Shown: one piece after another, positions 1,619 to 22,437 of the stretch | Position numbering within the stretch: the first letter of the stretch is position 1 | Layout: every line of letters begins with the position of its first letter | Source of the DNA: Muribaculaceae bacterium | Lineage (GTDB): Bacteria; Bacillota; Clostridia; Lachnospirales; Lachnospiraceae | Reading direction: 5' to 3' | Length of the DNA: 46,998 nt | NCBI GenBank assembly: GCA_023666425.1 | Contig: JAMPCA010000001.1 | Coordinates: 463,664 to 510,661, forward strand | Made by a program: the position numbers and the translations under genes | The notes under the pieces: model-generated | Seen by the model: only the letters and a program-made list of their open reading frames with translations | Told to the model about the DNA's origin: nothing | The model's database searches: none

Positions 1619-4600
1619 ATGTCTTTACAATTGGTTCTCGGGAGCTCCGGCAGCGGAAAAAGTGAATACATGTACCGCCGTCTCACAGCGGAGGCGGGAG
1701 AGCATCCGAAGAAAAACTATCTGGTCATTGTGCCGGAGCAGTTTACGATGCAGACACAGCAGAAGCTGGTGGATCTTGCGCCGAACCATGCAATTATGAA
1801 TATCGACGTCTTGAGCTTCAAGCGTCTGGCCTACCGGGTGTTTGACGAGCTGGGCTGTACGGACATTCAGGTGCTGGAGGAGACGGGAAAGAATCTGGCG
1901 CTCCGCCGTCTGGCGCAGGAGCAGGAGGAAAAGCTGACCGTGCTTCGGGCAAACATGAACCGCATGGGCTATATCGGGGAGGTCAAATCCCTGATCTCGG
2001 AGCTGGTGCAGTACAATGTGTCCCCGGAGCTGCTTCTTGCTATGACCGAGAGGGACGAGCTCCCTTCGGTGCTGGCGGCAAAGCTTAAGGATATCGTCGT
2101 CATGTATCAGGCTTTTCAGGAATTTATGCGGGGCAGCTGCATCACGGCGGAGGAGATTTTGCATGTGCTAAAAAATCTGGCGGCGGATTCTGCGATTCTG
2201 CGGGACAGTGTGATCGTGCTGGACGAGTTTACAGGCTTTACGCCGATCCAGAACGATCTTCTCCGGGAGCTTCTGCAGGTGGCCGATGTGATGGTTGCAC
2301 TGACAATCGACGGGCGGGAGGATTTCTACCACAGCCGGGGAGGCGAGGAGCTTTTCGACCTTACCAAAAAGACGATCCACACGCTGCTTGCGATGGCGGA
2401 GAGCCTGCGCGTGGAGGTTCTGGAGCCGGTGGTGCTGTCCGGAAGTGAAAAAAAGCGTTTCAAAAAGGCTCCGGCGCTCGCCTTTCTGGAGCAGAATCTG
2501 TTTCGCCCCTGCTATCAGCGGATGCACGGCGGAGTCAGGGAGATTCACCTTGCCACGGCAAAGAATCCGAGGGAGGAGCTGACGTGGGTTGCCAGAGAAA
2601 TCAGCCGGCTGGTGCGAAATGGCTGCCGGTACCGGGAAATCGCGGTGGTGACAGGAGCCTTGGAGAATTACCGCAGTTATGTAGAGCCGCTGTTTATGAA
2701 ATATGAGATCCCCTTCTTTATGGATACCACCAGGGAAGTATTGTTTCATCCTTTCATTGAATTCGTGCGTGCGGCCTTAGAGATTATCGAGAGCGGTTAC
2801 AGCTACACGGCGGTGATGCGCTTTTTGCGCTGCGGTTTCTGCGGGGTGGAGGAGCGCGTGGCGGACATGCTGGACAATTACCTTCTGGCGACAGGAATCC
2901 GGGGGCGTGCGGCGTGGCACAGACGCTTTGTGCGTATGCCCAGGCAGCAGGGGGACTATGATCTGGAAGTGCTCGAAGCCGTCAGGGAAAAGCTCTGCGC
3001 GCTGCTGGAGCCGCTGGATCAGGCCTTTTCTAAGAAAAAGGCGGCCGTCTCCGATGCTGTTTTGGCTCTGTACGGGCTGATGCGCGAGCTGGATATGGAA
3101 GGACAGCTCTGGGAGAGAGAACAGGAGCTGCTCGCAAAGGGGGAGCAGGCGAGATCCAGGGAGTACGGGCAGATTTACCGCATCGTTATGGAACTGTTTG
3201 AGAAGTATTACCGTCTCTTAGGGGAGGAGCCCCTGTCGGTTCACGACTTTACCGAGGTGCTGGAGGCGGGGCTTTCCGCCGCGGAGGTGGCCGTGCTTCC
3301 TCCGGGATATGACAGTGTCATCATAGGAGATATCGAGAGAACGAGGTTAAATGATACCAGGATTTTATTTTTTGTCGGTGTGAATGACGGCGTTGTGCCC
3401 AAATCGGCCAGCACCGGGGGCATTATCTCGGAGTACGAGCGGGAGCTTTTGGCGGAGTATGAGCTGACGCTTGCGCCGTCTGCGAGGGAGCAGGCCTTTA
3501 TCCAGCGTTTTTATCTCTACCGCAACCTGACAAAGCCCTCGGAACAGCTGTACATAAGTTATGCAAGGGTGGACAGCGGCGGAAAAGCAGTCCGCCCCTC
3601 CTACCTGATTGGCGTGATCCGGCGCATGTTTCCGGATCTTCCCCTGACAGAGCACGGGGATCTTTTGGCAGAAAAGGATTTTTACACGAAGTCATCGGCT
3701 CTCGACTATCTGGTCTGCGGGGAGAGGGATAAGGACTGGTATGCGCTGGCGAAGTCTTTAAAGAGCGGTACAGAGGCGGAGAGGGAGCTGGTGGAGCGGC
3801 TTCTTGCGGCTCCCTGTCTCTCCTGCGGGAGCGAACCCATCAGCCGGGCAATCGCGCTGGCGCTCTATGGCAGGCGTGCCGAGAGCTCTGTGACCCGCTT
3901 AGAGCGCTTTGCGGCCTGCGCCTATTCCCACTATTTACAGTATGGCCTGCGCCTCATGGAGCGGGAACTCTGCCGTTTTGCGAGTGTGGATATGGGGAAT
4001 ATCTATCACACGGCCTTAGAGCGGTACAGCAGAAAGCTGGCGGCTTCCCCCTACGACTGGTTCACGGTGCCGGACCAGACGAGGGAGGAGCTTGCCCGCA
4101 CGGCCATGGAGGAGGCGGCGGAGGAATGTCCGTATGTCCATGACACGGCGGAGAGCGCCTATCAGGCGAAGCGGATGCTTTCCATTTTTCAGGAGACGGT
4201 CTGGGCGCTGACGAAACAGGTGCGCGCGGGGCAGTTTGTTCCTGAAAAGTTCGAGGTCAGCTTTCGGGCGCTGGATGGGATGGACTCCCTGACCTATCCG
4301 CTGGAAAACGGCGTACAGATCCGCCTGAGCGGAAGGATTGACCGGGTGGATTACTGGAAAGACGAAGGCCTTGGCATTAAAATCATCGACTACAAGTCCG
4401 GGGCGGAGAGCTTTGACCTTTTCAAGCTCTATCACGGGCTGCAGCTGCAGCTTTTGGTGTACATGAACGCGGCGCTGGAGCTGGGGCGCAGGGAAAACGC
4501 CGGCGTTTCGGTGTTTCCGGCCGGCATTCTCTACTACCACATCGACGACCCGGTGCTTGCGGGGGCGGAGGATACGGAGCATGAGCTGCTCATGGCCCTT

Positions 4601-16045: not shown

Positions 16046-17230
16046 ATGAACAAGTCGGCAACGAGGATCTATATGATGACGCACAAGGCGTTTGATGTGC
16101 CGGAGGATGCGATGTATGTTCCGGTGTATGTGGGAAGCGCCGGCGCTTCTGCGGGGGAAGCGTCGGCTCTTTTCGGCTATACGAGAGACGACAGCGGCGA
16201 CAATATTTCAGACCAGAACTGCTATTTCAGCGAGCTGACAGGCATGTACTGGGTATGGAAAAATCAAAAGGACATAGAGAACGTGGGAATCTGCCATTAC
16301 CGGCGCTATCTGCTCAATGCGCAGGGATATATGTTCACGGAGCCGGAGATTATATCTCTGTTAGAAGAATACGATATCCTCACGACGAAAAATCTGCAGC
16401 TCAATGTTCCCTACGCGGAGGGCTTTGCCTTTCATCACAAGCCCGTCTATCTGGAAGAGACCGGGCGGGTGCTCTATGAGAGGTATCCTCTCTATTATGA
16501 AAGCTTCCGGCAGCTGGTACAGGAAAAGCACACTTATTTTGGCAATATGCTCATCTGTAAAAAGGAGCTGTATGACGAGTACTGCGGATGGCTTTTTGAT
16601 ATTCTTTTTGAGGTGCAGCGGCGGGTGCCCGTGGTGGAGAGCGACAGCTATCACAGACGCATTTTCGGCTTTCTCTCGGAGTTTCTGCAATATGTATGGA
16701 TCTGCTGTAAGCATTTGCGGGTGTGCGAGTGCATGGTCGGGATGCTGGGGGAAAAGGCGGAGGTCGGCGAGGTAAAGCGGCAGCTTGCGCGTTTTTTTGC
16801 CGCCGGGGACTATGCCGGGGCGAAGGTATTTTTTCTGGAGGCCAAAAGGCAGCGGCCGGATCTTTTGATGGAGGCCTCGGATATTACAGGGGAACTGCAT
16901 CTGTGTATGGAAGTGATCGCGATTGCGGGGCTTGAGCAGGAGCGCTACGGCCGGAATCTTCTGGATACCGTCCGGGATTTTAAGGAGCTTATGGCCTACT
17001 GCAATACGCTAAACCGCTATGCCATCCTGCCGCCGGATCAGGAGACGGGCGGAAAAGAGGAGGAAGAGAGAAGGCGCTGGCTGCAGGAAAAGGCGACGCC
17101 GGTGGCCGTCCGGACGGCGCGTGCGGTCATGCAGGCGGCTGCGGAAGGGATTGGAAAGAAAACAATGGCAGGATATGACAGTAAGGACCAGGAGGTAAAA
17201 GGCGATTATGCTGGAACTAAAGAACATTAG
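16046..17230 (+). CDS. DUF4422 glycosyltransferase
   Basis: A 394-residue protein whose N-terminal 240 residues match DUF4422 putative glycosyltransferases: RIYMMTHKAFDVP, a YVPVYVG strand, DNISDQNCYFSELTGMYWVWKN, and the family hallmark VGICHYRRYL (about residue 85). The rest is helical, with a Glu-rich linker near residue 335. DUF4422 enzymes are usually found in capsule or exopolysaccharide loci; here no such locus is adjacent. The start at ATG 16046 is preceded by GGAG; ATG 16034 is the alternative. The 3' end overlaps sufC by 23 bp. Confidence 0.8.
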   Translation: MNKSATRIYMMTHKAFDVPEDAMYVPVYVGSAGASAGEASALFGYTRDDSGDNISDQNCYFSELTGMYWVWKNQKDIENVGICHYRRYLLNAQGYMFTEPEIISLLEEYDILTTKNLQLNVPYAEGFAFHHKPVYLEETGRVLYERYPLYYESFRQLVQEKHTYFGNMLICKKELYDEYCGWLFDILFEVQRRVPVVESDSYHRRIFGFLSEFLQYVWICCKHLRVCECMVGMLGEKAEVGEVKRQLARFFAAGDYAGAKVFFLEAKRQRPDLLMEASDITGELHLCMEVIAIAGLEQERYGRNLLDTVRDFKELMAYCNTLNRYAILPPDQETGGKEEEERRRWLQEKATPVAVRTARAVMQAAAEGIGKKTMAGYDSKDQEVKGDYAGTKEH

Positions 17231-17969
17231 CTTTCAGGCAGAGGATGAGAAGGAGATTTTAAAGGACGTGAGCCTTGTGATCGACGACCGCATTGTGGTG
17301 ATCACCGGACCCAACGGCGGAGGTAAGTCCACGCTTGCGAAGGTGATCGCGGGCATTGTAACGCCGACGGGGGGACAGATTTTTCTTGACGGGGAGGATA
17401 TCACGGCATACTCGGTCACGGAGCGGGCAAAGGCGGGGATTGGACTTGCCTTTCAGCAGCCGGTGCGCTTCAAAGGGCTTACGGTGCGGGATCTGGTAAC
17501 GATCGCGGCGGGGCGGGAACTCTCCCTGAACGAGGCATGCACCTATCTCTCGGAGGTGGGACTGTGTGCGAGGGATTACATTGACCGCGAGCTAAATGCC
17601 AGTCTGTCCGGCGGGGAAATCAAGCGGATTGAGATTGCGACGATTCTGGCAAAGAATTCAAAGTTTTCGGTGTTCGACGAGCCGGAGGCGGGCATCGATC
17701 TGTGGAGCTTCCGGAGCCTGATCGGCGTTTTCGAAAAAATGCAGCGCGAGAATCAGGGCACGATTCTCATTATCAGCCATCAGGAGCGGATTTTAAATAT
17801 TGCGGACAGGATTATTTATATCAAGGACGGCATGGTTGAAAAATATGGGACGAGAGAAGAGGTGCTGCCGACGCTCATGGACACCTCGAAGGCAGGCTGC
17901 GATGTACTGCTGGACAAGCTGGAGAGTGATTCGTTCGCAGGGGCTGCCGGAAGGGAGAGTGTGCAATGA
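17208..17969 (+). CDS. sufC: Fe-S cluster assembly ATPase SufC
   Basis: A 253-residue ABC-type ATPase. It shows Walker A GPNGGGKST (about residue 36), Q-loop AFQQPVRFKG, signature LSGGEIKRIEIATIL, Walker B plus catalytic Glu FSVFDEPEAGID, and a switch His in ISHQER. SufC powers cluster assembly on SufB-type scaffolds in the cytoplasm. Unlike a transporter ATPase it is paired with the scaffold gene, overlapping its start (ATGA at 17966-17969). AGGAGG precedes the ATG inside the DUF4422 gene. Confidence 0.93.
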   Translation: MLELKNISFQAEDEKEILKDVSLVIDDRIVVITGPNGGGKSTLAKVIAGIVTPTGGQIFLDGEDITAYSVTERAKAGIGLAFQQPVRFKGLTVRDLVTIAAGRELSLNEACTYLSEVGLCARDYIDRELNASLSGGEIKRIEIATILAKNSKFSVFDEPEAGIDLWSFRSLIGVFEKMQRENQGTILIISHQERILNIADRIIYIKDGMVEKYGTREEVLPTLMDTSKAGCDVLLDKLESDSFAGAAGRESVQ

Positions 17970-18886
17970 TCGACGAGATAGGAAAGAATCTGTTGAAAGA
18001 GGTGGCGGAGCTGGATGCGCTTCCGGTGGGCGCCTACAATATAAGGGTAAACGGAGCCAGCAGCGAGCGCAATACGACGGCGAATATTGATATTGTGAGC
18101 AAGGAGGACAAGTCCGGCATCGATATTGTCATTAAGCCGGGGACGAAAAATGAGAGCGTGCACATACCGGTGGTGCTCTCCCAGAGCGGGCTTAAAGAGA
18201 CGGTGTACAACGACTTTTATGTGGGGGAGGACTGCGATGTGACAATCGTTGCCGGCTGTGGCATCCACAACTGCGGCAACGGGGACAGCTCCCACGACGG
18301 TCTGCACCGCTTTTTCGTTGGAAAAAACGCGAAGGTGCGCTATGTGGAAAAGCACTACGGCGAGGGGGAGGGCCGGGGTAAGCGGCTGATGAACCCCACC
18401 ACAGAAGTGCATCTGGAGGAGGGCGCCAGCATGAAGCTGGAGGCGACCCAGATCTCCGGGATTGACGACACCCTGCGGAAAACGACTGCCACGCTGGCGG
18501 CAAATGCCCGGCTTGAGGTGCAGGAAAAGGTGCTGACGGACGGGGAGCAGAAGGCGGTCTCGGAGTTCGTGGCGGATCTAAACGGCGCGGGCAGCAGCTG
18601 CAACATTGTGAGCCGCACGGTGGCGAAGGAGCACAGCGTACAGCATTTTGCCAGCACTCTGCGGGGAAACGCGCCCTGCAGCGGTCATACAGAGTGCGAT
18701 TCCATCATTATGAACGATGCGAAAGTATCCGCCAGCCCGAACCTAACGGCGGCGGACGTGGACGCGAGCCTGATTCACGAGGCGGCCATCGGCAAAATTG
18801 CCGGTGAGCAGCTTTTAAAGCTTATGACGCTGGGGCTGACAGAGGCCGAGGCGGAGGAGCGGATCATAAATGGATTTTTAAAATAG
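17966..18886 (+). CDS. Minimal SufB/SufD-type scaffold protein
   Basis: A 306-residue beta-helix scaffold protein, much shorter than E. coli SufB (about 495) or SufD (about 423). It keeps the SufBD core (VAGCGIHNCGN, MKLEATQISGI, LRGNAPCSGHTECDSI) and the family C-terminus IHEAAIGKIAGEQLLKLMTLGL. With SufC it forms the two-gene minimal SUF arrangement known from archaea and anaerobic Clostridia; it would act as both B and D subunits. No cysteine desulfurase (SufS) or SufU is nearby. The last residues lead into an AT-rich gap. Confidence 0.88.
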   Translation: MIDEIGKNLLKEVAELDALPVGAYNIRVNGASSERNTTANIDIVSKEDKSGIDIVIKPGTKNESVHIPVVLSQSGLKETVYNDFYVGEDCDVTIVAGCGIHNCGNGDSSHDGLHRFFVGKNAKVRYVEKHYGEGEGRGKRLMNPTTEVHLEEGASMKLEATQISGIDDTLRKTTATLAANARLEVQEKVLTDGEQKAVSEFVADLNGAGSSCNIVSRTVAKEHSVQHFASTLRGNAPCSGHTECDSIIMNDAKVSASPNLTAADVDASLIHEAAIGKIAGEQLLKLMTLGLTEAEAEERIINGFLK

Positions 18887-19041
18887 ATATTAAAATATAT
18901 CAATAAAATTGCATAAATTTAATCATTCTATTACAGCAGGTAGTGTGTTAAAATTTATCATAAATATTGATATTATTTTATATGCCTGTACAAAAAGCGG
19001 CAGATGGTTTCGCTTGTGCCGGCGGAAAGAAGGAGGTAGTC
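18887..19041 (+). promoter_or_regulatory. AT-rich leader upstream of the LeuA-AraC gene
   Basis: A conspicuously AT-rich intergenic stretch. The 9-mer ATATCAATA (18897-18905) recurs as its reverse complement at 18965-18973, about 60 bp away. I see no T-box specifier, antiterminator or intrinsic terminator here, and no leucine-rich leader peptide. A promoter must lie here if the gene is not read from sufB, but no pair of boxes stands out. Confidence 0.4.
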
Positions 19042-19077
19042 ATGCCATGCATGACAGAGAAGGATGAAGAATTTTGA
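19042..19077 (+). CDS. Possible 11-codon leader ORF overlapping the LeuA start
   Basis: AAGGAGG at about 19030-19035 is correctly spaced for the ATG at 19042, which opens MPCMTEKDEEF and stops at TGA 19075-19077. The leader therefore overlaps the LeuA start codon (19064) in another frame. The large gene has no well-spaced ribosome binding site of its own (AAGG abuts its ATG). Translational coupling is the simplest reading. The peptide contains no leucine, so classical leucine attenuation is not suggested. Confidence 0.45.
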   Translation: MPCMTEKDEEF

Positions 19078-21058
19078 CAAATATGAGCGACAGTATTTTA
19101 TGCCACCGGTCTGTGAGTATGACTGGGTGAAGAAAGATCATATCGGGAAACCGCCGGTCTGGTGCTCTGTGGATTTGCGGGACGGGAATCAGGCGCTGAT
19201 CGAGCCCATGAGTCTGGACGAGAAGCTTGAATTTTTCCAAATGCTGGTAGATATCGGATTTAAGGAGATTGAGGTTGGCTTTCCGGCGGCCTCGGAGACG
19301 GAATTCATCTTTATGCGCACGCTGATTGAGCGGGACATGATTCCGGACGACGTGACGGTTCAGGTGCTGACGCAGGCGAGGGAGCATATTATCCGGAAGA
19401 CCTTTGAGGCGGTGAAGGGTGCGCCCCACGCAGTGGTGCATCTGTACAATTCCACCTCTGTGGCTCAGAGAGAGCAGGTATTTAAAAAGGATAAGGAAGA
19501 GATCAAACGTCTGGCAGTGGACGGTGCGAAGCTCCTGAAAAAGCTGGCGGAAGAGACAGAGGGGGATTTCTCTTTTGAGTACAGCCCGGAGAGCTTCCAC
19601 GGCACGGAGGTCGAGTATGCGCTGTCGGTCTGCAACGCGGTGCTGGACGTCTGGCAGCCGGGCGACCACAAGTCGATCATCAATATCCCGGCCACAGTGG
19701 AGACTGCCATGCCCCATGTATTTGCGACCCAGATTGAGTATATCAGCAAGAATTTAAAATACCGGGACAATGTCGTATTGAGCCTGCATCCCCACAACGA
19801 CAGGGGCTGCGGCGTCTGTGATGCAGAGCTGGGGATTCTGGCCGGAGCCGACCGCATCGAGGGAACTCTGTTTGGCAACGGCGAGCGGACGGGCAATGTG
19901 GATATTGTGACCCTCGCGATGAATATGTTCTCCTACGGCACAGATCCGGGGCTGGATTTTGCAGATATGCCCCATATCCGGGAGACTTATGAGAGACTTA
20001 CAAGAATGCATGTGGGCGACCGCACGCCCTATGCCGGAGATCTGGTGTTCACCGCCTTTTCCGGCTCCCACCAGGACGCGATTGCCAAGGGTATGGCATG
20101 GCGCGGGGAGAAACATCTGAAGACATGGACCGTGCCCTATCTGCCGATTGATCCCGTGGACGTGGGCAGGACATACGACGCGGACGTGATCCGCATCAAC
20201 AGCCAGTCCGGCAAGGGCGGCATCAGCTACATTTTAAAAGAGAATTTCTCCATCTCCATGCCCGAAAAGATGCGGGAGGAGGTAGGCTATGCGGTGAAGC
20301 AGGTCTCGGACGAGGAGCATAAGGAGCTTTCCCCCCAGTGGGTCTACAATATTTTCGAGGAGAATTATGTGAACCGGACGCCCTATTTTACGGTGGACGA
20401 GTGCCACTTTAAGCAGACCGACGGCATCATGGCGGAGGCGACCATTGCCTTTGGCGGAAAAAAGACCATTGTGGACGCAAACGGCAATGGACGGCTGGAT
20501 GCGGTGAGCAATACCATCAAGCAGTTTTTCAGCGTCAGCTATGAGCTTTCCACATACGAGGAGCACGCGCTGTCCAACGGCTCTTCCTCCAAGGCGATCG
20601 CCTATGTGGGGATTACCTGCGACGGAAAGAATTACTGGGGAGTCGGCATGGACGAGGATATTATCAAGGCCTCGATCCACGCGTTGACGGTGGCGGTCAA
20701 CAAGCTTCCGCAGATCGAGACCAGCGAGGGGGCAAAGGACGAGAGACTGACCGCGATGCTTAACTTTATCCAGAACAATTACCAGGAGGTCACGCTGGAG
20801 AGCATGGCGGAGCATTTCCACCTCTCTGAGCCGTATATCTCCAAGTACATCAAGGATAAGTCCGGCAGAACCTTCGGCGAGCAGGTGACGAAGATCCGCA
20901 TGAAGCGGGCAAAGACGCTCTTAAAGAATGGCAATATGACCGTGGAAAATATCGCCTGCTCAGTGGGGTATCCGAATGTGGAGCATTTTAACAGAACCTT
21001 TAAAAAAGCGTTCGACATGACTCCGATCCAGTACCGCAATGCGAGCCGGGCGAAATGA
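19064..21058 (+). CDS. 2-isopropylmalate synthase fused to an AraC-type DNA-binding domain
   Basis: A 664-residue protein with two parts. Residues 1 to about 555 match the long (LeuA type 2) 2-isopropylmalate synthases, which join acetyl-CoA and 2-oxoisovalerate in the first committed step of leucine synthesis: DLRDGNQALIEPM (residues 37-49), EVGFPAASETEF, the metal site LHPHNDRG, GTLFGNGERTGN, GSHQDAIAKG, and a C-terminal LeuA-dimer regulatory domain (FTVDECHFKQTDG to the VNKLP region). Residues about 560-664 are a complete AraC/XylS double helix-turn-helix: LESMAEHFHLSEPYISKYIK, then VENIACSVGYPNVEHFNRTFKKAFDMTPIQYR. Typical LeuA2 ends near 560. No stop or frame change separates the parts. 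Leucine-responsive DNA binding is an inference. A secreted LRR protein gene follows 20 bp later. Confidence 0.9.
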   Translation: MKNFDKYERQYFMPPVCEYDWVKKDHIGKPPVWCSVDLRDGNQALIEPMSLDEKLEFFQMLVDIGFKEIEVGFPAASETEFIFMRTLIERDMIPDDVTVQVLTQAREHIIRKTFEAVKGAPHAVVHLYNSTSVAQREQVFKKDKEEIKRLAVDGAKLLKKLAEETEGDFSFEYSPESFHGTEVEYALSVCNAVLDVWQPGDHKSIINIPATVETAMPHVFATQIEYISKNLKYRDNVVLSLHPHNDRGCGVCDAELGILAGADRIEGTLFGNGERTGNVDIVTLAMNMFSYGTDPGLDFADMPHIRETYERLTRMHVGDRTPYAGDLVFTAFSGSHQDAIAKGMAWRGEKHLKTWTVPYLPIDPVDVGRTYDADVIRINSQSGKGGISYILKENFSISMPEKMREEVGYAVKQVSDEEHKELSPQWVYNIFEENYVNRTPYFTVDECHFKQTDGIMAEATIAFGGKKTIVDANGNGRLDAVSNTIKQFFSVSYELSTYEEHALSNGSSSKAIAYVGITCDGKNYWGVGMDEDIIKASIHALTVAVNKLPQIETSEGAKDERLTAMLNFIQNNYQEVTLESMAEHFHLSEPYISKYIKDKSGRTFGEQVTKIRMKRAKTLLKNGNMTVENIACSVGYPNVEHFNRTFKKAFDMTPIQYRNASRAK

Positions 21059-21078: not shown

Positions 21079-22437
21079 ATGAAAAGATTTGTAAAAAGCT
21101 TTGGCATGGCGGCATTTTTCCTGCTGGCGCTTTTGTTTTTCCGGACGGATGCAAAAGCGGCGACAGCACCGCATATTGTGGGGCAGGAAGAGGTCATTTA
21201 TTTAGATGGCAGGGATAAAATCGCCGTGCTGGGAGATAACATTATATCTGTCACATATTCCTCGGATAAGAAAACGGTGGCGACTGTGAGCAAGGACGGC
21301 GTGGTCAAACCGAAGAAGAAGGGGAAGGCTACGATCCGGGCAAAGGTCACCTATAAGAAAAACGGAAAGAAGACGACCAAAACCCTCAAGTATCAGGTGC
21401 AGGTGCTGGGAAAGTCCACGGAGTATTTTGTGTACACCAAGACGAACCGCATCCTAAGGCTGAAGGACAAGGCGAAAAAGCTTGAGAGCCTGTATATCCC
21501 CGGATATAACGCGAAAGGGAAAATTACGGCAATGTATGGAGGCTCGCTGGCATACAATGAGAATCTCAAATACCTCTATGTTTCTGACAATCTCGAGACG
21601 TTTGTACCCCATGTAGAGGATATTTATCCCCACAGCCTGATGCATTGCCCCAATTTAAAGAGCGTCCATCTGGGGAAGAATTACGGATATTTGCAGTACA
21701 TGTACAACTGTCCCTCGATCGAGCACATCACAGTGGATGAGCGCAATAAGAATTATAAGGTCGTGGACGATGTGTATTTCAGTAAGGACGGAAAGAACCT
21801 CTGCTATTATCCCGCGGGGAAACGGGACGCCGCCTATGTCATACCGGAGGGGACAGAGCGCGTGTATGGATACGCCTTTTACGGCGCGCGCTATCTGCAG
21901 AGTGTTACCCTGCCGGAGACGGTGAAATCGCTTGGGGAGGGAGCTTTTTACGCAGGCAGCCTGCAGGAAGTCCATATGCCGGAGTATGCGGCCATCAATA
22001 TGGAGGAGGGCTATGTTTTTGCGGAATGCAGGAATTTAAAAAGTCTCCGTCTGCCGGAGGGCGTTACCAGTATTTACCGCATGTGCTGTAATTGTACGGC
22101 GCTTGAGTCGGTGGAGCTTCCGGCCTCGTTTTCGGCTTCCTGGTGGCTGTCGTCGGCGTTTACCGGCTGCAGCAGCCTGAAAAACATTCAGTTGAACGGG
22201 GGGTGTGAGGCCTGCAGGGTGATCGACGGCGTGGTCTTTTCCATGGACGGCAGGGAGCTGTATCTCTATCCCGCCGGAAAAACGGACATTGCCAGTTATA
22301 CGGTGCCTGACGGCACGGAGGTAATCTGGGAGTATGCTTTTTACGATGCGTCCTGTACGGAAGTGCGGATACCGGCTTCTGTCAAGATTGAGGAGGATGC
22401 ATTCAGAAAGGATACAGATATAAAAATCATACAGTAA
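21079..22437 (+). CDS. Secreted BspA-like leucine-rich-repeat protein with Ig-like domain
   Basis: A 452-residue exported protein. Residues 1-28 form a signal peptide (hydrophobic FFLLALLFF, cleavage expected after TDAKA). Residues about 35-115 resemble a bacterial Ig-like (Big2) domain: SYSSDKKTVATVSKDGVV, then KKKGKATIRAKV. Residues about 130-450 are LRR_5/BspA-type repeats, seen in LKYLYVSDNLETF, CPNLKSVHLGKNY, LQSVTLPETVKSLGEGAF and CRNLKSLRLPEGV. Such proteins are surface or secreted binding proteins in gut anaerobes. No LPXTG anchor is seen. AAGGAGG precedes the ATG. The 20-bp gap suggests cotranscription with the LeuA-AraC gene. Confidence 0.85.
   Translation: MKRFVKSFGMAAFFLLALLFFRTDAKAATAPHIVGQEEVIYLDGRDKIAVLGDNIISVTYSSDKKTVATVSKDGVVKPKKKGKATIRAKVTYKKNGKKTTKTLKYQVQVLGKSTEYFVYTKTNRILRLKDKAKKLESLYIPGYNAKGKITAMYGGSLAYNENLKYLYVSDNLETFVPHVEDIYPHSLMHCPNLKSVHLGKNYGYLQYMYNCPSIEHITVDERNKNYKVVDDVYFSKDGKNLCYYPAGKRDAAYVIPEGTERVYGYAFYGARYLQSVTLPETVKSLGEGAFYAGSLQEVHMPEYAAINMEEGYVFAECRNLKSLRLPEGVTSIYRMCCNCTALESVELPASFSASWWLSSAFTGCSSLKNIQLNGGCEACRVIDGVVFSMDGRELYLYPAGKTDIASYTVPDGTEVIWEYAFYDASCTEVRIPASVKIEEDAFRKDTDIKIIQ

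What the first reader, a model, noticed from the sequence alone, without database searches (positions are those of the whole stretch)
19064..21058. 2-Isopropylmalate synthase carrying a complete AraC-type DNA-binding domain
One uninterrupted frame encodes a full-length LeuA type 2 enzyme, including its LeuA-dimer regulatory domain, followed by about 105 residues with both helix-turn-helix units of AraC/XylS regulators. A leucine-pathway enzyme joined to a transcription factor at the domain that binds leucine in this family suggests a trigger enzyme: leucine binding or catalytic state could switch DNA binding. The leader has no T-box, so this protein might itself sense leucine. I am not aware of a description of this fusion, but could not search.
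Basis: partly seen in the sequence, partly recalled or inferred. Interest (0 to 1): 0.82.

Follow-up and report, generated by a model that had tools for sequence, protein, structure and literature searches.

The report
Leucine enzyme with DNA-binding tail
In many gut bacteria the first enzyme of leucine synthesis carries its own DNA-binding domain, and a conserved DNA element sits at a fixed place in its own gene's promoter, so the enzyme probably senses leucine and regulates its own gene.

Summary
In detail: window 19064-21058 encodes one 664-residue protein, a full LeuA type 2 synthase plus a complete AraC-type double helix-turn-helix (HTH) domain, the only LeuA of a 98%-complete genome. Fusions occur in 45 of 182 LeuA-bearing genomes of the family, one per genus; two more have the HTH as a separate adjacent ORF. 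Three lie in two other families. The likely target is new: an AT-rich element, usually with an extended -10 box exactly 23 nt on, precedes fused leuA. It passes leave-one-out in 43 of 45 fused and 2 of 2 split loci, and passes in 61 of 66 named and 7 of 7 class-wide loci, but 0 of 22 unfused relatives; 18 of those carry a T-box. It tops genome-wide searches in 30 of 30 fused or split genomes, 26 of which supplied training sites. Best reading: an autogenous trigger enzyme whose leucine-binding enzyme part controls an AraC-type regulator of its own promoter. Binding, leucine switching and sign are inferred. Eight open full-text searches found no description.

The parts
19064..21058 (+). leuA-araC fusion gene, 664 aa
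   Evidence: open frame; Pfam and NCBIfam matches
19157..19984 (+). HMGL-like catalytic domain, residues 32-307; the stretches SVDLRDGNQ, HPHNDRG and GNGERTGN are present (taken as active-site motifs from recall)
   Evidence: these stretches lie in invariant columns of 45 fusions
20330..20707 (+). LeuA_dimer allosteric domain, residues 423-548 (site of leucine binding in the M. tuberculosis enzyme)
   Evidence: alignment to 1SR9/3FIG; leucine site from passages of PMC11057210
20708..20749 (+). short variable linker, residues 549-562 (mean pairwise identity 0.37)
20750..21043 (+). AraC-type DNA-binding domain, residues 563-660, two HTH units, seven helices in the model
   Evidence: dN/dS 0.04-0.10 in the four usable pairs of nine
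18890..18903 (+). operator O1, upstream half TTAAAATATATCAA
   Evidence: profile score 42.7; R1 E = 3.1e-9 genome-wide (this site is among the 34 from which R1 was built)
18909..18926 (+). operator O1, promoter-proximal half TTGCATAAATTTAATCAT
18926..18931 (+). -35 slot at 17-bp spacing (TTCTAT, a poor -35), directly next to O1
   Evidence: from the phasing; inferred
18946..18954 (+). extended -10 box TGTTAAAAT, 23 nt after the end of O1
18967..18981 (-). O2: candidate inverted half-site (TTGATATTATTTTAT on the + strand) just after the predicted start of transcription
   Evidence: score 14.1 against a shuffle 99% point of 9.0

Best explanation
The protein is an autogenous trigger enzyme. It makes 2-isopropylmalate and, through its C-terminal AraC-type domain, binds O1 next to the -35 position of its own promoter; a ligand of the enzyme part, most likely leucine, switches this. 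The synthase part supplies the dimer (the M. tuberculosis homologue is a homodimer), so two HTH domains can occupy the two halves of O1. In the version I favour, the protein activates leuA from an extended -10 promoter with a poor -35 when leucine is scarce. When leucine fills the pocket at the LeuA_dimer interface the HTH domains are repositioned: O1 is released, or the inverted site O2 at the start of transcription is occupied and the promoter is shut. One allosteric site would thus control both enzyme activity and enzyme amount. Shown by sequence: fusion, its conservation, the element, its phasing and its co-occurrence with the HTH. Inferred: binding, activation, leucine as signal, role of O2. 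The confidence is for the core (binds its own promoter, switched by a ligand of the enzyme part); separately about 0.85 for binding, 0.6 for leucine as the signal, 0.65 for activation.
For: (1) Element above threshold, leave-one-out, in 43 of 45 fused and 2 of 2 split loci; in 61 of 66 named loci not used in training; 0 of 22 unfused relatives (best -4.6); 7 of 7 further fused loci, three of them from two other families and three of them from one genus. (2) Fixed phasing: TGnTAnnnT exactly 23 nt after O1 in 39 of 46 family-set sites and 42 of 61 named sites, background 0.0022 per position, and in 7 of 7. (3) Genome-wide profile search: in 30 of 30 fused or split genomes the top hit lies upstream of leuA (E 1.3e-16 to 6.0e-8, G137 4.8e-4); 26 of these supplied training sites, the four that did not (G108, G137, G176, G144) gave 4.0e-10, 4.8e-4, 2.3e-9 and 3.9e-9; eight unfused genomes give at best 0.0029. 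(4) Where the HTH is absent inside the fused region of the tree (L062, L072) the element is absent too; where it is a separate ORF (L046, L056) the element stays. (5) HTH under purifying selection, dN/dS 0.04-0.10 in four pairs, and as conserved as LeuA_dimer. (6) Only LeuA of the genome. (7) One weak second site, in G137, lies before a gene that reads as livJ of a branched-chain amino acid transporter.
Against: No binding or expression data. Misses: L043 (10.1, leave-one-out) and L052 (-10.1) of the family set; L127, L138, L148 (only 164 nt upstream held), L160 (-1.5) and L191 (8.3) of the named set; L176 passes at 13.6 but without the -10 spacing. Upstream regions were read for only 22 of about 135 unfused genomes, the closest ones. 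The two halves resemble each other as direct repeats only modestly (0.53 and 0.51 at 22 and 23 bp, 0.49 at 14 bp). Independent HTH contrasts on starred branches are only 3 (sign test p 0.25). 22 fused loci keep a T-box, so protein control alone was not enough there. leuC and ilvD loci of 14 fused or split genomes carry no R1 site. The hinge (residues 321-390) is poorly modelled, so no path from the leucine site to the HTH can be read from the model.
Confidence: 0.7

Rival explanations
1. The protein binds its own promoter but does not sense leucine: plain autoregulation by enzyme amount. Leucine control of the gene comes from the T-box where kept, and otherwise only feedback inhibition of the enzyme remains.
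For: 20 of 22 fused loci with a T-box carry the element and the T-box in tandem, i.e. a tRNA-reading leucine sensor was kept beside the protein. The linker is short and variable.
Against: The T-box state needs 12 changes among the fused and split rows of the tree, and 39 of the 45 fused family-set loci have no T-box at the gathering score, so something else probably reports leucine there. The HTH follows directly on the domain that binds leucine in the M. tuberculosis homologue.
Confidence: 0.15
2. The element is the site of another regulator of the same bacteria, and the HTH tail has other targets or a structural role.
For: No direct proof of binding by the fusion; the own genome has further AraC-type HTH matches.
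Against: The element is absent at leuA of 22 unfused relatives and no comparable site exists in eight unfused genomes; it is present with fused leuA in two other families, kept with split HTH genes, and close to single-copy per genome.
Confidence: 0.08
3. Binding at O1 represses rather than activates leuA, with leucine as co-repressor (a variant of the best explanation, not exclusive of its core).
For: A repressor beside or over the -35 position would also work; O2-like half-sites just after the start, in 40 of 75 loci without a T-box-like leader, suit repression.
Against: The strict 23-nt phasing to an extended -10 with a poor -35 is what contact with RNA polymerase demands (established knowledge of AraC-type activators, recalled); a repressor does not need it.
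Confidence: 0.3
4. Assembly artefact or decaying fusion.
For: Two genomes show a frame change between the parts.
Against: Conserved across dozens of genera and isolate genomes, purifying selection on the HTH; the stand-alone HTH protein of the G061 type is seen on 19 contigs (P0121).
Confidence: 0.01

Closest known systems
2-isopropylmalate synthase LeuA type 2 (NF002991; M. tuberculosis LeuA, PDB 1SR9/3FIG)
   Same: whole enzyme with catalytic, IPMS_D2 and LeuA_dimer domains; closest solved structures by sequence and by fold
   Different: the M. tuberculosis chain ends where residue 548 of this protein aligns and has no DNA-binding domain
AraC/XylS family regulators (response regulators 6swi and YesN 3lsg, MarA 1bl0)
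   Same: double HTH of about 100 residues; candidate site next to the -35 position
   Different: the effector and dimer part is a biosynthetic enzyme
Ada of Escherichia coli (recalled, no call)
   Same: an enzyme joined to an AraC-type domain that activates its own gene
   Different: DNA-repair methyltransferase switched by covalent methylation, not by a pathway end product
Trigger enzymes with DNA-binding domains: PutA, BirA, NadR (recalled, no call)
   Same: a metabolic enzyme that also regulates transcription of its pathway
   Different: other enzymes, other DNA-binding folds, mostly repressors
Leucine T-box leader (RF00230)
   Same: controls leuA in relatives; in the five read, the specifier codons are CUC, CUC, CUG, CUG, CUA
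   Different: RNA sensor of uncharged tRNA; absent from this window, in tandem with the new element in some relatives

Membership tests
LeuA type 2 synthase | catalytic, IPMS_D2 and LeuA_dimer domains in order | tested here: met
LeuA type 2 synthase | catalytic motifs conserved | tested here: met
   SVDLRDGNQ at 35, HPHNDRG at 242, GNGERTGN at 271, in invariant columns of 45 fusions. That these are the active-site motifs is recalled
LeuA type 2 synthase | synthase activity and leucine feedback | not testable with these tools
   needs an assay; stretches ANGNGRLDAV and EEHALSNGSSSKA align to the 1SR9 regulatory domain
AraC/XylS family | two HTH units, about 100 residues, seven helices | tested here: met
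   HTH_18 2.6e-20 and HTH_AraC 5.6e-12; helices 560-571, 578-585, 589-600, 604-622, 627-633, 639-650, 654-663 in the model
AraC/XylS family | binds a two-part site next to the -35 position | tested here: inconclusive
   such a site is there with fixed phasing; binding not shown, direct-repeat similarity modest
Trigger enzyme | one protein with both catalytic and gene-regulatory domains | tested here: met
Trigger enzyme | regulates its own gene or pathway | tested here: inconclusive
   co-occurrence, phasing and co-absence support it; no experiment
Trigger enzyme | DNA binding switched by substrate or product | not testable with these tools
   needs binding assays with and without leucine
T-box regulated leuA | RF00230 leader upstream of the gene | tested here: not met
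   none in L001; own-genome T-boxes lie at other genes

The most novel reading that the evidence does not exclude
Several clostridial lineages have moved leucine control of leuA from a tRNA-reading RNA leader to the enzyme itself: unfused ancestors with a T-box, then fusion plus O1 in front of the T-box, then repeated loss of the T-box and gain of an inverted second operator O2, leaving a two-operator switch in which the allosteric leucine site of the synthase sets both enzyme activity and transcription.
Probability: 0.4. Interest if true: 0.9.

Novelty: new variant of a known kind. Interest (0 to 1): 0.8.

Why it matters
Amino acid pathways are controlled by feedback on the first enzyme and, separately, by regulators of gene expression. 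Here both seem to be packed into one protein, using an allosteric domain that is well studied in LeuA. That makes a sharp question testable: can an enzyme's feedback site be read directly by a fused transcription factor? The relatives supply the comparison states in living bacteria: unfused with T-box, fused with element and T-box, fused with element only, and split in two ORFs. By the titles of the named records the bacteria are Lachnospiraceae and related anaerobes, many from gut and rumen.

Tried and rejected
Mutual exclusion of element and T-box: my first reading from 400 nt upstream. Wrong: the genome-wide profile and a 1000-nt rescan show the element in front of the T-box. The correct statement is tandem in 20 of 22 T-box fused loci (L138 none, L160 below threshold).

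A wide regulon: in 18 genomes an exact-pattern search found sites with 0-2 mismatches only at leuA; at 3 mismatches there were five scattered other matches, and the reversed control pattern gave two matches. The profile in 38 genomes gives leuA as the only strong target. leuC and ilvD loci of 14 fused or split genomes have no R1 site; the cruder profile gave one match of 12.4 in L259 (G017), more than 1.3 kb before the ilvD match, which R1 did not report. Six livJ-type loci over the family cut-off were found in 4 of these 14 genomes; only one, in G137, has a site. A site in G047 (E 1.2e-5) lies about 390 nt before an ORF that reads as PspA-like and is unexplained.

A second operator of a single form: with a core profile passed the shuffle threshold in the forward sense in 25 of 94 loci; one search showed that mostly inverted half-sites recur (40 of 75 loci without, 0 of 20 with a T-box-like leader). 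T-box labels came from a text pattern and distance, not from Rfam, and the loci are related, so this is an observation, not a test. L001 itself scored -29.6 and 14.1 (inverted).

Literature: eight searches of open full-text papers; I saw the listings, and passages of PMC5171806 and PMC11057210. None of what I saw describes a LeuA-AraC fusion. Most subscription papers and all bioRxiv preprints are outside that library.

Independent-contrast test of HTH against element: only 3 pairs on starred branches, so it cannot reach significance. Rows not listed as misses were coded there as element-bearing; L160 was coded as present although it scores -1.5.

Limits of sampling: upstream regions were read for 22 of about 135 unfused genomes (three more unfused genomes were searched genome-wide). 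The named scan kept the best 80 of 564 relatives. In the tree, T-box loci of the named set were taken in full and others in part, so the 12 changes are a count in that sample, partly on weak branches.

Not done: Rfam on the named operator-bearing loci beyond 15 controls; codon-level tests beyond nine pairs (five of them without a usable HTH dS); multimer prediction; the second structure job.

Full report
What is there. Window 19064-21058 (+) encodes one uninterrupted protein of 664 residues. Pfam finds HMGL-like (32-307), IPMS_D2 (326-392), LeuA_dimer (423-548) and two AraC-type HTH models (581-659 and 621-659), all over their curated cut-offs; NCBIfam matches residues 5-547 as 2-isopropylmalate synthase, 788.8 bits against a cut-off of 455. 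By sequence the nearest solved structures are M. tuberculosis LeuA for residues 27-516 (and weakly 520-548) and YesN/MarA-type domains for about 560-660. An AlphaFold2 model from 45 fusions has mean pLDDT 79.7, seven helices in the HTH part with block means of 74-91, and a weak hinge at 321-390 (block means 36-62); its best PDB matches are M. tuberculosis LeuA entries, including the leucine-bound 3FIG. In the own genome (98% complete) this is the only LeuA; the other 11 matches cover residues within 533-660.

It is a conserved family. The 120 listed best homologues, of 7984 scored, have the same domains. Of 200 genomes of the family, one per genus, 182 have LeuA at E <= 1e-40. By my count of the listed matches, 44 run to about residue 660; one more (G163) is cut by the contig end inside the HTH, giving 45 fused. 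G061 and G078 have LeuA ending at 553 and 558 residues, followed at once by a separate HTH ORF: in G061 by a change of frame, in G078 at a run of eight A. The match list was cut at its weak end. A class-wide draw of 291 genomes gave 10 full-length fusions, three of them in two other families (f14 twice, f73 once). A scan of named genomes kept the best 80 of 564 relatives, including isolates.

Selection. Between the window and near relatives dN/dS of the HTH part is 0.043, 0.043, 0.067 and 0.096 for the four pairs with a usable value, out of nine tried; dS is near saturation, so these are rough. Mean pairwise identity among 45 fusions is 0.67 for the HTH, 0.68 for LeuA_dimer, 0.80 for the catalytic part and 0.37 for the linker.

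The promoter element. Upstream sequences of fused leuA genes share an AT-rich element, consensus about TTAAAAwAnATCAA-n6-TGATTAAAT, followed by ATCA or TCAC. A profile was trained on 39 sites within 400 nt. With leave-one-out scoring over 1000 nt it exceeds 11 in 43 of 45 fused loci (L043 scores 10.1, L052 -10.1) and in both split loci; among 22 unfused loci, the closest ones of about 135 unfused genomes, the best score is -4.6. The maximum of 120 shuffled upstream regions was -1.4. L057 was set aside because its contig ends inside LeuA. Among 80 named loci, 74 are complete, 6 duplicate training loci and 2 have under 120 nt upstream, leaving 66; 61 exceed 11 (misses L127, L138, L148, L160, L191). 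One passing site, L176, lacks the promoter spacing. All 7 fused loci fetched from the class-wide draw have it, with the -10 box at 23 nt; three of the 7 are of one genus.

Phasing. The TA of the extended -10 pattern TGnTAnnnT lies exactly 23 nt after the element in 39 of 46 family-set sites and 42 of 61 named sites, against a background of 0.0022 per position. At the usual 17-bp spacing the -35 position is directly next to the element and its sequence is poor (TTCTAT in the window). This is the geometry expected of an activator that touches RNA polymerase (recalled for AraC-type regulators), and it is why I favour activation. The two halves of the element resemble each other as direct repeats only modestly.

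Genome-wide. A 71-position sequence profile built from 34 sites was run on 38 genomes. In 30 of 30 fused or split genomes the best hit lies upstream of leuA, with E from 1.3e-16 to 6.0e-8, and 4.8e-4 in G137. For 26 of them that is partly by construction, since their sites built the model; what is new there is that nothing else in the genome comes near. The four that gave no training site (G108, G137, G176, G144) scored 4.0e-10, 4.8e-4, 2.3e-9 and 3.9e-9. Eight unfused genomes gave best values of 0.0029 to 0.18. E-values of this model are rough. In the own genome the leuA site has E 3.1e-9 and the next hit 0.15. Extra sites: G137 before a gene that reads as livJ, followed by livH- and livM-like genes (E 7.2e-4), and G047 about 390 nt before an ORF that reads as PspA-like (1.2e-5). 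leuC and ilvD loci of 14 fused or split genomes have no such site, apart from a distant match of the cruder profile in L259.

T-box. Rfam finds a T-box upstream of leuA in 18 of 22 unfused loci (not L060, L061, L062, L068) and in 6 of 45 fused loci of the family set. Of 19 named loci without an element within 400 nt, 16 have a T-box; of 15 named loci with the element there, none does. Extending the scan to 1000 nt shows the element in front of the T-box in 20 of these 22 T-box fused loci. In five T-boxes (three of fused, two of unfused loci) the codon after GAA of the specifier region reads CUC, CUC, CUG, CUG and CUA, all leucine (my reading of the alignment). The window has no T-box at leuA; the genome's T-box matches are at other genes.

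History. Trees of the LeuA part alone (106 rows by FastTree; 60 rows by IQ-TREE) place the fusions in one region, nested among unfused, mostly T-box-bearing proteins. Fused or split against unfused needs 5 changes; T-box presence needs 12 changes among the fused and split rows chosen. Unfused L062 and L072 lie inside the fused region with supports of about 83-97 (L054 and L060 are less firmly placed); none of these has the element, and no related HTH ORF was found in the roughly 2.5 kb held downstream of them. Only 3 independent contrasts lie on starred branches, so this cannot be a significance claim.

A second element. In 75 operator-bearing loci without a T-box-like leader, 40 have a half-site, mostly inverted (TTGATwTATTTTAA), within 50 nt after the -10 box, against 0 of 20 with a T-box-like leader; the threshold was the 99% point of shuffled leaders. 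In the window it is 18967-18981. It may be a repression site that took the place of the T-box. This is a suggestion.

Mechanism. The M. [quoted passage not shown] a change in that loop (A555V in the M. abscessus enzyme) is linked to loss of allosteric control (PMC11057210, passages seen). The AraC-type domain starts about 14 residues after that domain ends. The most economical model is that leucine, by closing the dimer interface, moves the two HTH domains in or out of the geometry that fits O1. I put about 0.85 on binding of its own promoter, about 0.6 on leucine as the switch, and about 0.65 on activation at O1.

Known or new. Both parts are members of known families (LeuA type 2, AraC/XylS) by the features tested. 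As a combination it works like a trigger enzyme with a DNA-binding domain, for which Ada, PutA, BirA and NadR are the precedents that I recall. I found no paper on it in eight searches of open full texts. I rate it a new variant of a known kind, with an unusually clear predicted target and a set of natural intermediates.

Noticed in passing
L056 / L115 (G078), end of leuA: LeuA and the HTH ORF are in different frames, separated at a run of eight A; this could be an assembly error, a natural split or a slippage site that yields both forms.
   Followed up: partly
L116 (G061) 2724-3065, minus strand: Stand-alone AraC-type HTH protein of about 102-114 aa directly after leuA; its database match P0121 is seen on 19 contigs, and similar small HTH proteins recur (P0149 on 20 contigs, P0194 on 12).
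   Followed up: partly
L234 2694-2762 (G137): An O1-like site with an extended -10 box before a livJ-like gene followed by livH- and livM-like genes: a possible second target.
   Followed up: partly
L233 3473-3552 (G047): An O1-like site with a promoter about 390 nt before an ORF that reads as PspA-like; unexplained.
   Followed up: no
L114 8843-11673 (own genome): ORFs that read as leuD and leuC lie next to a divergent ORF that reads as a LysR-type regulator; no O1-like site found there.
   Followed up: partly
window 17208-18886: An ABC-type ATPase and a SUFBD_core protein side by side (SufC/SufB-like pair), directly before the leuA promoter.
   Followed up: no
window 21079-22437: Protein with BspA-type leucine-rich repeats and a Big_2 domain, starting 20 nt after the leuA stop; possibly co-transcribed.
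   Followed up: no
L018, L019 leaders: Terminator-like hairpins with T-runs remain in leaders that have no Rfam T-box match (hairpins seen by eye): possible remnants of a lost T-box.
   Followed up: no
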